Positions 7,979 through 58,350 of a stretch of DNA of 64,000 nucleotides are shown one piece after another (within the stretch, counting starts at the first letter, position 1; every line of letters starts with the position of its first letter). The position numbers and the translations under genes were made by a program. The notes below the pieces were generated by a model. It was not told the origin of the DNA and did not search any database. It saw only the letters and a program-made list of their open reading frames with translations. The stretch comes from Halothiobacillaceae bacterium (GTDB lineage: Bacteria > Pseudomonadota > Gammaproteobacteria > Halothiobacillales > Halothiobacillaceae): NCBI GenBank assembly GCA_028696185.1, contig JAQVHL010000002.1, forward strand, positions 1-64,000, read 5' to 3'.

Positions 7979-8415
7979 AGGGTGTTTACAAAATAAATGT
8001 TTGTTGGACGACAGTGGGCGTCCGCTTGCAATTCGGGTGGTTCGAAGTGCGTTACATGAGGCGGGCGAAACAGAGTGCAATCCTGTCTTAAAGCGGCTTT
8101 CGGAACCGTTGAAGTGGTTTTTCGCCCGCTTTGAGGCTTGGCCTTTCGAACATGCGTCAGTGCAGGCGGGCGAGTGCCTTTCTTTGCTTGCCCAAAGAAA
8201 GGCACCAAAGAAAGGGCACCCCCACGGAGGCGCCCTTCGGGCAAGCCCTGGCCGGGGCCGCTCCGACGCGACTCCTGTCGCGGCGGGACTGAAAGGGCCC
8301 TCCATGGCTCTTTCACCCGGTCTCCACAACCCCGTTCATGGCGCCTCCAAGGGGGATCTGGGAATCCTTCGTCCGGCGTTGATATTGTTCGTAGCACTAT
8401 TTTTGTAAGCACCCT
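7979..8415. repeat. Palindromic MITE-like repeat element, copy 2
   Basis: 437 bp bounded by the inverted ends AGGGTGTTTACAAAA (7979-7993) and TTTTGTAAGCACCCT (8401-8415), with one mismatch. The inner part has the hairpin CTTTCTTTG-CTTGCC-CAAAGAAAG (about 8176-8199) and the block around 8200-8250 that is shared with 1-60 and 18725-18800. It fills the space between the kinase-Rieske start and the phosphoesterase stop and carries no gene or transposase frame. Confidence 0.72.
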
Positions 8416-12141: not shown

Positions 12142-12948
12142 ATGCGGCCCAACATCACCCTGGTTGAAACGCTCGTGCGCGAGGCGGCCCGTGAGGAGCT
12201 GCTGCCGCGCTTTCGTAAAGTCGCCCGTCACCAGAAGCCGGATGGAAGCTGGCTGACCGAGGCCGATCTGGCCATGCAGGCGCGCCTGCACGCGGAACTG
12301 GCCGCACGCTGGCCGGCCTTCGGCTTTCTGGGCGAGGAAATGAGTGCGCAAGAGCAGGCGCGCATCCTGATGACTCATGCGGGTGAGGGCGCGGAGGCCG
12401 GCTACTGGGTGCTCGACCCGCTGGACGGCACCAGCAACTACTCGGCGGGTCTGCCGGTGTTCTCCGTGTCGCTGGCGCTCATGTGCGGTGGAAGGGTGGT
12501 GCTGGGTGTGGTCTACGACCCGATGCTCGATGAGTCTTTTGCCGCCGTGGAGGGCGCCGGGGCGACCCTCAATGGGGAGCCTCTGCAGGCCAGAACGACC
12601 GGTATCGATCTGACACGCGCATTGGCCTGCGTCGATTTCAAACGGCTTCCTCCCGCCCTCGCCGCGCGGATAGTGAGCAACGCGCCGTATGGCTCGCAGC
12701 GCTCCATCGGTTCGGTGGCGCTGGACTGGTGTTGGGTGGCGGCTGGGCGTTTCCATGTGTACCTGCATGGTCGCCAGTCGCTGTGGGACTACGCTGCCGG
12801 CGCTCTGATACTGGCTGAAGCCGGCGGTTTCTCCGATACGCTGGACGGCGAGCCCGCATCGTTGTCGCTCAAACCGCGTTCGGCCCTGTGTGCGACGGAC
12901 GCCGTTTTGTTTGCGCAGTGGCGGGATTGGCTCAGAGGGGGGGGATAA
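12142..12948 (+). CDS. Inositol-monophosphatase-family phosphatase
   Basis: 268 residues. Metal-binding motifs of the IMPase/FBPase fold are visible: GEE (about 78-80), DPLDGTSNYSAG (about 113-124) and the C-terminal SLWDYAAGALILAEAGG. The first motif has DGSWLTEADLAMQ in place of the usual KxDxSPVTxAD. SuhB, CysQ and histidinol-phosphatase are all in this family, and the sequence alone does not choose between them. AAGGAAAA lies upstream of the ATG at 12142. Its 3' end abuts a repeat arm. Confidence 0.85.
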   Translation: MRPNITLVETLVREAAREELLPRFRKVARHQKPDGSWLTEADLAMQARLHAELAARWPAFGFLGEEMSAQEQARILMTHAGEGAEAGYWVLDPLDGTSNYSAGLPVFSVSLALMCGGRVVLGVVYDPMLDESFAAVEGAGATLNGEPLQARTTGIDLTRALACVDFKRLPPALAARIVSNAPYGSQRSIGSVALDWCWVAAGRFHVYLHGRQSLWDYAAGALILAEAGGFSDTLDGEPASLSLKPRSALCATDAVLFAQWRDWLRGGG

Positions 12949-13080
12949 AAACGAAGGTTTGCTGGACACTTGGAACCAAGCTGAGCGGGGGCTCCCCTCT
13001 CCCCCCTTGGGCCCTCCATGGCCCTTTCACCCGGTCTTCACAACCCCGGCCATGGCGCCTCCAAGGGGGACGGAGCCCTC
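12946..13080. repeat. Solo arm of the palindromic repeat element, copy 3
   Basis: About 135 bp starting with the terminal sequence at 12947-12967, which matches 19 of 21 bases of the end at 18230-18250. It continues into the block GGGCCCTCCATGGCCCTTTC around 13011, which also occurs around 18851. Only one arm is present, with no hairpin core. The rest of the spacer, 13081-13249, shows no gene or recognisable site. Confidence 0.65.
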
Positions 13081-17809: not shown

Positions 17810-18229
17810 GGAAAATTCCTCCTCGGGGGAAGGCTCATGATACACCTCGTCGGGAGGGGGAATTGAAACCTCCCCCCCGCTGCTGTGAGTTGCTAATTAG
17901 CAATTGATAATCCATGGGGGCTAATCAAGGATCGCCAGCGAGATGTTCTACACGGTCCTCGCTCCGCCCCGGCAAGCCGGATTCTGGATGGTTTCGCGTG
18001 CGGGTATCGGGTGGCCTACTGCGGTTTGTGGTCCGACAAGGAACCTTCCGAAGCGGTCATTGCCACGGCGCTGGTGGACGTCATTGGTGATGCCGGCTTT
18101 GCGGTGCGGACGCACCGGAGCGCGCATACCGAAACGGTGCCTGAAAAAAGGCTCAGCCTGCTTGGACGGGTGGGTATGCCGAACCGCGCATTGAAGACGA
18201 TATGTTCCGGCGTGGTTGGGAGGGGGGGG
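17810..18229. other. Gene-free spacer with a 14-bp palindrome
   Basis: A 420-bp gap between pip and repeat copy 4. An AT-rich patch holds the perfect palindrome TTGCTAATTAGCAA (17890-17903), about 80 bp upstream of pip on its strand, which could be an operator. A plus-strand frame from about 17897 to 18225 stays open and looks moderately protein-like (for example GYRVAYCGLWSDKEPSEAV), but it has no convincing start and runs into the repeat. It may be a decayed gene; I do not call it as coding. Confidence 0.4.
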
Positions 18230-18974
18230 CAAAACGAAGGTTTGTTGGACGCTTGTGACCAAGCTGAACGGGGCCCCCCTCTCCCCCTTGGGACCGCCAT
18301 GGACTGGCCTGTGGAAGCCGGGTAAATGGGCCAGGGATGGCCCATTTAGCCTCGCCGCAACAGGATGTTGCGTCGAGCCGGCCCGGCTGGAGCAGGTCAG
18401 GCCAGGGCTTGCCCGAAGGGCGGTCCCGTGGGGGTGTGTTCTTTTGGTTACTTTTCTTGCACAAGCAAGAAAAGTGACTCGCCCGCTTGCGTTGACGCCT
18501 GTTTGAAAGGCCAAGCCTCATGGCGGGCGAAAAAAGGCTCCAACGGTTATTGAAAGCGGCTTTAACCAGTGCCTGAACGACTTGATCTTTCGCAAGTGGA
18601 CAGGCTGAAAAATCAAGGATATGTTTTCAAAAACCGCTCAGGACAGGCTTGCGCGCTGTTTCGCCCGCCTCAAGCTGCGCACTTCGAATGGCCCGCATCG
18701 CGCGCGGGCGAGTACCTTTCTTTGCTTGCCCAAAGAAAGGTACCAAAGAAAGGGCACCCCCACGGAGGCGCCCTTCGGGCAAGCCATGGACGGGGCCGCT
18801 CCGACCGGGCCGTCCCAACGCGACGTCCTGTCGCGCTGGGACTGAAAGGGCCCTCCATGGCCCTTTCACCCGGTCTCCACAACCCCGTCCATGGCGCCTC
18901 CAAGGGGGCGCTGGGAATCCTTCGTTCGGCGTTGTCAAAGGCCGTCCAACAAACCTTCGTTTTGTAAACACCCT
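18230..18974. repeat. Palindromic MITE-like repeat element, most complete copy
   Basis: 745 bp bounded by perfect 21-bp inverted ends at 18230-18250 and 18944-18964, the right one continuing into TTTTGTAAACACCCT. Inside are two diverged inverted arms of about 320 bp each: a left arm with the CTTTTCTTG-type hairpin (about 18450-18475) and a right arm with the CTTTCTTTG-type hairpin (about 18716-18740). Both carry CGCCCTTCGGGCAAGCC-type blocks. The centre contains gene-free sequence also seen at 150-290. No transposase is encoded. The 85 bp up to ttcA show nothing else clear. Confidence 0.75.
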
Positions 18975-19059
18975 TTGAAGGAGCTGCGAGAAGAAGAATG
19001 AGTCGCCCGCAAAACCCGCTACAATCGCCCTTTCGTGTTCCTGATGCCTGTCCCTGTCG

Positions 19060-55226: not shown

Positions 55227-57391
<2,165 letters not shown>

Positions 57392-57860: not shown

Positions 57861-57890
57861 AAAAAAACGAACCGCCGCAAGCGCGGCGGT
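57861..57890 (-). terminator. Intrinsic terminator of the CsrB-like RNA
   Basis: On the minus strand: ACCGCCGC, loop GCTT, GCGGCGGT, then TCG and seven T. The 8-bp stem is perfect (57871-57878 with 57883-57890). There is no plus-strand T-run, so it acts for the minus strand. Confidence 0.92.
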
Positions 57891-58274
57891 CAAAAAGGAG
57901 AGTGGGTAATCACCAGTCCCTGGTATCCCGCGCAATCCTTGCGGGTTCTCCTGTCCCTCACTCGTGGGCTCTCCCGAGCCCGGCGCCCGTCCTTAAGGCG
58001 AATGCTCCTTGCTGGCCCCATCATGGGGCCGACACGTCGTCCTGCTGACGCGGCTTCCTGTCCTAGGGTCTGGGTCTCCCGCCCATCCTCTTGACCCCGG
58101 TGCGATATTCCCTAGTCACACCGTTCATCCTTGCCCAATCCTTGGGATGCCCCGTGATCGTTCCAGATCGTTCCGCCCGTTTGTCCTGCGGCATCCTGCC
58201 GAAAAATCCTTGAAGCATCCTGCCGGGCGGTGGGTGCATGCGCTGTTCCTGGCGCAATTGAATTGTTGCAAACC
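57861..58274 (-). ncRNA. CsrB/RsmZ-like CsrA-sequestering small RNA (predicted)
   Basis: No protein gene fits this 650-bp gap. Read on the minus strand, 57891-58260 contains 23 GGA trinucleotides, 15 of them AGGA, many as AAGGA or CAGGATG, against about 7 expected at this base composition. This is the hallmark of CsrB/C and RsmX/Y/Z RNAs, whose GGA loops bind the translational regulator CsrA/RsmA. The RNA would end at the intrinsic terminator at 57861-57890. A weak -10-like GAATAC (58281-58286) would put the 5' end near 58274, giving about 410 nt, close to E. coli CsrB (369 nt). An upstream GacA-type box agrees. The 5' end is inferred. Confidence 0.8.
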
Positions 58275-58332
58275 GTAGGTGTATTCAACAGCGAAACGGG
58301 GATTAATGTAAGTCGGCCAGTACGGAAGTATT

Positions 58333-58350
58333 TGTAGGATTGCTCCTACA
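58333..58350. promoter_or_regulatory. GacA/UvrY-type upstream activating sequence
   Basis: TGTAGG-ATTGCT-CCTACA is an 18-bp inverted repeat with the TGTAAG-N6-CTTACA layout of GacA/UvrY sites (AA to GG in each arm). Its centre is about 67 bp upstream of the inferred 5' end of the CsrB-like RNA, the usual distance in rsm promoters. Confidence 0.72.

What the first reader, a model, noticed from the sequence alone, without database searches (positions are those of the whole stretch)
57861..58350. Unannotated CsrB/RsmZ-like regulatory RNA with its own GacA-type promoter box
The largest gene-free gap outside the repeats holds 23 GGA motifs on one strand in about 370 nt (15 as AGGA), ends in a strong intrinsic terminator on that strand, and has an 18-bp GacA/UvrY-type inverted repeat at a fitting upstream distance. 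Together these form a complete CsrA-titrating sRNA locus. Such RNAs diverge fast and are often missed by sequence searches.
Basis: partly seen in the sequence, partly recalled or inferred. Interest (0 to 1): 0.8.

Follow-up and report, generated by a model that had tools for sequence, protein, structure and literature searches.

The report
GacA-boxed CsrA-sponge RNA beside queA
A gap between genes in a Halothiobacillaceae bacterium carries 23 GGA motifs, a GacA-type box and a terminator, and likely makes a regulatory RNA predicted to soak up the global regulator CsrA; the same arrangement sits upstream of queA in 20 related genomes and was not found in a sister genus in which no gacA ortholog was found either.

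Summary
In detail: 23 GGA (15 AGGA) on the minus strand, the only perfect GacA/UvrY-type 18-bp inverted repeat in the window, and a strong intrinsic terminator. No Rfam family reaches its threshold at this locus; CsrB scores 17.7 bits against 71. Comparison makes the reading firm. The genome has csrA and a gacA/uvrY-type regulator directly before uvrC. In 20 of 20 genomes of two sister genera with a queA match, a box plus a GGA-rich stretch lies upstream of queA, with a -10-like hexamer and a first hairpin at nearly the same distance from the box. GGA triplets are conserved more often than average and mostly predicted unpaired. In the fourth genus (5 genomes) no GacA ortholog was found, nor this arrangement (one queA site unreadable), while csrA is kept in 5 of 5. 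Best reading: a CsrB/RsmZ-type RNA that Rfam misses, predicted to be GacA-activated and to titrate CsrA. Transcription, GacA dependence and CsrA binding are untested. New member of a known kind.

The parts
58333..58350 (-). GacA/UvrY-type 18-bp inverted repeat (box), TGTAGGA-N4-TCCTACA
   Evidence: Only one in the window, 3 exact in the genome; conserved upstream of queA in 20 of 20 g3/g4 genomes with queA
58262..58267 (-). Predicted -10 hexamer AACAAT
   Evidence: Same offset (83-88 from box start) as CATCAT/CAATAT/CATGAT/CATTAT in 20 relatives, A second and T last in all; prediction only, no consensus promoter
57863..58255 (-). Predicted sRNA, about 390 nt, 23 GGA; both ends inferred
   Evidence: GGA density, terminator, promoter geometry, synteny in relatives
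58240..58255 (-). First hairpin GCGC-CAGGAACA-GCGC with GGA in the loop
   Evidence: Starts at offset 94-95; relatives' first hairpins at 92-96; 68 of 2000 shuffles do the same
57861..57891 (-). Intrinsic terminator (stem 57891-57870, T-run 57867-57861)
56330..57391 (-). queA, the syntenic neighbour downstream
   Evidence: NCBIfam QueA 494 bits
57497..57736 (+). DUF465 (YdcH-like) gene between the RNA and queA, on the opposite strand
   Evidence: Pfam PF04325, 60.6 bits
58389..58982 (-). Open frame upstream of the box; no family found

Best explanation
The minus-strand stretch 58255-57863 carries 23 GGA motifs behind a perfect GacA-type box and likely encodes a CsrB/RsmZ-type small RNA that is predicted to be switched on by phosphorylated GacA and to sequester CsrA. 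Shown directly: motifs, box, terminator, csrA, a uvrC-linked gacA, and recurrence of the arrangement upstream of queA in related genomes. Inferred: GacA~P binds the box about 86 bp upstream of the start and activates a promoter without a consensus -35; the RNA folds into small hairpins that expose many GGA; several CsrA dimers bind it and so leave their mRNA targets, whose translation or decay changes.
For: GGA/AGGA density beyond shuffles. Perfect box and terminator. csrA; uvrC-linked gacA (uvrC adjacent in 22 of 22 orthologous loci). Box plus GGA-rich stretch upstream of queA in 20 of 20 g3/g4 genomes with queA. Fixed promoter geometry. First two helices paired in 92.5% of cells against 26-51% in slid controls. 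GGA triplets invariant 17 of 31 against 141 of 561; unpaired probability 0.62 against 0.37. GacA ortholog and the arrangement absent together in g2 while csrA stays.
Against: No Rfam family over threshold. DNA search finds no relative (1 of 57, itself). The covariance model from relatives scores the locus only through the box and does not single it out in the genome. In one search two of five measures do not exceed shuffles (pairs changed on both sides 383 of 500; further pair types 500 of 500). Eight of 23 GGA are predicted mostly paired, and A-rich triplets such as GAA are more unpaired than GGA. GacA match below NCBI's cut-off; no GacS/BarA ortholog assigned. No expression data.
Confidence: 0.91

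Rival explanations
1. The stretch is a GacA-controlled 5' leader of the downstream queA operon, with CsrA acting in cis, and not a free sRNA.
For: It lies upstream of queA on the same strand in own and in 20 relatives, and in relatives the distance is only 623-959 nt.
Against: Strong terminator 470 nt before queA in own and a DUF465 gene on the other strand in between; in relatives a TAGACTGCGC/TAAACTGCGC-like stretch just before queA reads as its own -10 (by eye).
Confidence: 0.04
2. It is a CsrA-sponge RNA, but the box is read by one of the other GacA-like regulators and not by the uvrC-linked one.
For: The genome has four full-length GacA-like regulators; the one at C79:71084 lies about 300 bp from another exact box.
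Against: Across the family the uvrC-linked ortholog follows the box: found in own and 21 of 21 g3/g4 genomes, in 0 of 5 g2 genomes.
Confidence: 0.08
3. The GGA richness is a by-product of a protein-coding or repeat stretch; no functional RNA.
For: Open frames of up to 99 aa exist on the plus strand and overlapping frames on the minus strand.
Against: The longest frame within the predicted RNA is 58 aa; in the g4 alignment 129 of 151 gap runs (not independent) are not multiples of three; no repeat family beyond one 12-nt pair; recurrence with box in 20 genomes.
Confidence: 0.02

Closest known systems
CsrB of Escherichia coli / Rfam RF00018 (CsrB/RsmB)
   Same: About 390 nt predicted, 23 GGA (E. 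coli CsrB has 22 GGA, PMC7652899, passages), an 18-nt inverted repeat of the UvrY type upstream (PMC4682653, passages).
   Different: Covariance score 17.7 of 71 bits; box centre about 86 bp from the predicted start, against -183 in E. coli csrB; next to queA.
RsmY/RsmZ of Pseudomonas
   Same: GacA site TGTAAG-N6-CTTACA-like and at a similar distance (-75 for rsmY, -196 for rsmZ; PMC4950607, passages); GGA in loops.
   Different: Three times longer and with far more GGA than the short Rsm RNAs (their lengths recalled); no RsmX/Y/Z match listed (where only the best of a clan is kept).
TwoAYGGAY RNA (RF01731)
   Same: Same Rfam clan as CsrB, two matches in this window.
   Different: The matches are at 18.2-18.9 kb inside a dispersed repeat, not at this locus.

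Membership tests
Rfam RF00018 (CsrB/RsmB) | Covariance score at or above the gathering score of 71 bits | tested here: not met
   17.7 bits; relatives' best 35.6 bits, 0 of 27 genomes over the cut-off; 0 matches over any gathering score in 20 relatives' loci
Csr/Rsm sponge RNAs (functional class) | Many GGA/ANGGA motifs, largely exposed in loops | tested here: met
   23 GGA, 15 AGGA; 15 of 23 mostly unpaired, 14 of 23 can sit in a small hairpin loop
Csr/Rsm sponge RNAs (functional class) | GacA/UvrY-type inverted repeat upstream | tested here: met
   58333-58350
Csr/Rsm sponge RNAs (functional class) | Own intrinsic terminator, no conserved reading frame | tested here: met
Csr/Rsm sponge RNAs (functional class) | csrA and gacA/uvrY in the same genome | tested here: met
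   GacA below NCBI's E. coli-type cut-off but uvrC-linked
Csr/Rsm sponge RNAs (functional class) | Sequence/structure homology by a model that leaves out the own sequence | tested here: inconclusive
   Best window hit is the locus (13.9 bits, E 0.014), but the score comes from the box; other boxes of the genome score 14.3-15.5
Csr/Rsm sponge RNAs (functional class) | GacA-dependent transcription of the RNA | not testable with these tools
   Needs expression data; only the phylogenetic link is at hand
Csr/Rsm sponge RNAs (functional class) | Binds and sequesters CsrA | not testable with these tools
   Needs a binding assay

The most novel reading that the evidence does not exclude
Halothiobacillaceae carry their own CsrB lineage, invisible to Rfam and fixed upstream of queA, grown in two genera to roughly 450-600 nt with up to 33 GGA. 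One sister genus lost gacA and this sponge together while keeping csrA, so CsrA there has escaped GacA control or is titrated by a GacA-independent RNA such as the GGA-rich one beside ispH in G004. In the window's genome GacA would also directly switch on a Cache-domain gene and a DUF302 gene.
Probability: 0.4. Interest if true: 0.55.

Novelty: new member of a known kind. Interest (0 to 1): 0.42.

Why it matters
It would supply the CsrA antagonist for a family of sulfur-oxidising bacteria (lifestyle recalled, not tested) for which four literature searches listed no described one. It gives a syntenic handle, queA, to find such RNAs where sequence search and Rfam models fail. The genus that keeps csrA without a GacA ortholog or this RNA is a natural test of how CsrA works without GacA control.

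Tried and rejected
DNA search of the locus in 57 relatives found only itself: the RNA diverges too fast for that. Rfam models stay below threshold. A covariance model of promoter plus first two hairpins from 20 relatives, own sequence left out, is box-driven and not decisive; in the whole-genome run, which scored 150 of 1037 candidates in the own genome, the locus itself is not in the list. Model R1 had its helices one column off by my mistake and was replaced by R2. A second RNA beside ispH, suggested by a weak hit in G004, was not seen at ispH in the window's genome or in the other 22 family genomes with an ispH match (one of these 22, G022, gave only a short contig end). queA neighbourhoods outside the family: of 80 loci fetched, 70 have more than 1000 nt upstream and 0 of 70 are GGA-rich by my threshold of 7 AGGA or 14 GGA in 300 nt; two of the 80 have a degenerate box of 12 of 14 letters, L013 about 450 nt upstream of queA and L080 elsewhere. 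BarA/GacS: 66 matches, none over the cut-off; the one N-terminal match (C94) lies in a frame that looks like a GGDEF/EAL protein by eye. A coding explanation was rejected.

Full report
Observation. The sequence at 57861-58350 is as described. On the minus strand 57862-58290 there are 23 GGA and 15 AGGA; on the plus strand 2 and 1. Dinucleotide shuffles give 15.4 +/- 2.7 GGA (9 of 2000 reach 23) and 3.3 +/- 1.7 AGGA (0 of 2000 reach 15). In 400-nt windows over both strands of the 64 kb the locus has 24 AGGA/AnGGA starts; the next best has 11. The box TGTAGGA-N4-TCCTACA at 58333-58350 is the only one of its kind in the window. The terminator is at 57891-57870 followed by seven T. No sigma-70 promoter pair reaches the scan threshold, which fits an activator-dependent promoter but does not show one.

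Genome partners. csrA lies on contig C100 (Pfam E 3.6e-24, NCBIfam 108 bits), just downstream of a lysC-like aspartokinase frame (named by eye). The best UvrY/SirA/GacA match, C80:4148-4810, has a receiver and a LuxR-type HTH domain and is followed at once by uvrC and a pgsA-like frame (by eye). It does not reach NCBI's cut-off (205 of 280 bits), but uvrC is adjacent in 22 of 22 orthologous loci. Three further GacA-like regulators score 170-192 bits. The sensor BarA/GacS could not be assigned.

Family. Locus L056, titled Halothiobacillaceae bacterium isolate MAG_Cluster_1, is 100% identical over 2719 nt to the queA locus of G004, a genome of the same family as the window. The family set is 27 genomes: own (g1), 5 of g2, 10 of g3, 11 of g4.

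Conservation. queA was found in 26 of 27 genomes. In 20 of 20 g3/g4 genomes with queA a box lies 623-959 nt upstream of the queA match: the exact pattern in 14, one letter off in the other 6. It is followed by 13-27 GGA in the stretch 60-500 nt after it, and by 17-33 in the longer stretches taken for alignment (for G005 and G016 the end was not recognised and the stretch runs to queA). One further queA-like copy in G008 (L097) lacks box and GGA. In the 10 g4 genomes with queA the exact box occurs once per genome, at that place. In g2, none of seven queA loci has a box of 12 or more of 14 letters or a GGA-rich stretch (at most 10 GGA in 300 nt), but G004 shows only about 180 nt upstream. Genome-wide, the box with up to one mismatch occurs in 1 of 5 g2 genomes (G001), where the surroundings have at most 7 GGA in 300 nt. 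Of 80 queA loci fetched from genome contigs (one of them, L056, a family member cut off upstream), 70 have more than 1000 nt upstream and 0 of 70 are GGA-rich.

Co-occurrence. The uvrC-linked GacA is found at 210 bits or more in own and in 21 of 21 g3/g4 genomes; at E 1e-30 or better 4 of 5 g2 genomes have no match and G004 has a distant one of 114.8 bits, below the own genome's second-best paralog of 134. csrA is found in 5 of 5 g2 genomes and in 23 of 27 overall; the misses are G014, G016, G023 and G026. So where no GacA ortholog was found, the box-driven RNA was not found either, while csrA stays. This may be a single loss: it is one comparison, not five.

Architecture. In own and in 20 of 20 relatives a -10-like hexamer with A second and T last lies at offset 83-88 from the box start, and a hairpin begins near offset 95 (own 94-95; relatives 92-96); in own it is GCGC-CAGGAACA-GCGC. 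68 of 2000 shuffles place a GGA hairpin at 94-96. Three of 20 relatives (G005, G011, G014) keep the stem without GGA. On the 20-relative alignment the first two helices are paired in 92.5% of cells, against 26-51% when slid, with C-G/U-A exchanges in 7 sequences and G-C/C-G in 4. Cells paired, cells changed on both sides and the covariation score exceed all 500 shuffles; pairs changed on both sides (383 of 500) and pair types (500 of 500) do not. The long g4 alignment has 17 of 149 predicted pairs with kept changes on both sides, but a covariation term of only -1.77 kcal/mol. GGA triplets of one g4 row (G012) are invariant in ten rows in 17 of 31 cases, all triplets in 141 of 561; GGC and GCC score higher still. 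In own, GGA are unpaired with mean probability 0.62 (all bases 0.37), 15 of 23 above 0.5, though GAA, AAC and AAG score higher; 14 of 23 can sit in a small hairpin loop (all triplets 39%), in relatives 296 of 531 (34%). The predicted start near 58255 puts the box centre about 86 bp upstream, between the -75 and -196 reported for rsmY and rsmZ (PMC4950607, passages); E. coli csrB has its site at -183 (PMC4682653, passages).

Weak points. CsrB scores 17.7 of 71 bits here; no family is over threshold in 20 relatives' loci; the best sub-threshold score is 35.6 bits in G020. The model from relatives finds the locus as the best window hit but only through the box. RNA ends, and the 450-600 nt in relatives, are inferred; in g4 a T-run about 270 nt after the box could end some transcripts early, although the consensus fold pairs it.

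Mechanism. From established knowledge of the BarA/GacS-UvrY/GacA-CsrA system (review PMC7652899, passages) the likely chain is: a GacS-like sensor phosphorylates GacA, GacA~P activates the RNA, the RNA sequesters CsrA. Every link beyond the DNA elements is inferred for this organism.

Literature. Searches for Halothiobacillus with CsrA (2 papers) and with small RNA (8), CsrB with Thiomicrospira, sRNA and GGA (0) and CSRNA_FIND (1) listed nothing that by title or abstract describes this RNA. The library holds open-licence papers only. Searches on Csr/Rsm RNAs in general gave the papers cited; of each I saw passages only.

Noticed in passing
18200-18990, similar pieces at 1-660, 8019-8381, 12935-13069: A long dispersed repeat with inverted copies; two stretches in it pass Rfam's threshold for TwoAYGGAY (48 and 44 bits, gathering 43), a family of the same clan as CsrB. 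Similar pieces occur in other contigs of the genome and beside ispH in two g2 genomes.
   Followed up: partly
L144:3018-3035 (G000:C79:72017): A second exact GacA-type box about 110 bp before a Cache-domain gene, close to a PAS histidine kinase and a LuxR-type regulator; not GGA-rich: a possible direct GacA-type target.
   Followed up: partly
L145:2039-2056 (G000:C96:139538): A third exact box, about 35 bp before a DUF302 lipoprotein-like gene, with another DUF302 gene divergent on the other side.
   Followed up: partly
L123:1460-1700 (G004:C80): In the g2 genome G004, without GacA ortholog, a GGA-rich stretch (15 GGA, 7 AGGA in 200-300 nt) with a terminator-like end lies convergent to ispH; CsrB model 17 bits, no box seen by eye. 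Possibly a GacA-independent CsrA sponge.
   Followed up: partly
58307-58312, and columns 34-40 of alignment A3: A possible half-site downstream of the box (CTTACA in own; TCCTACG in g4, TCTGACG or TCCGACG in g3; by eye), reminiscent of the extra partial site described for E. coli csrB (PMC4682653, passages).
   Followed up: no
L013:4551-4568: Outside the family, a degenerate box (12 of 14 letters) about 450 nt upstream of queA in CP070733.1, without GGA richness.
   Followed up: no
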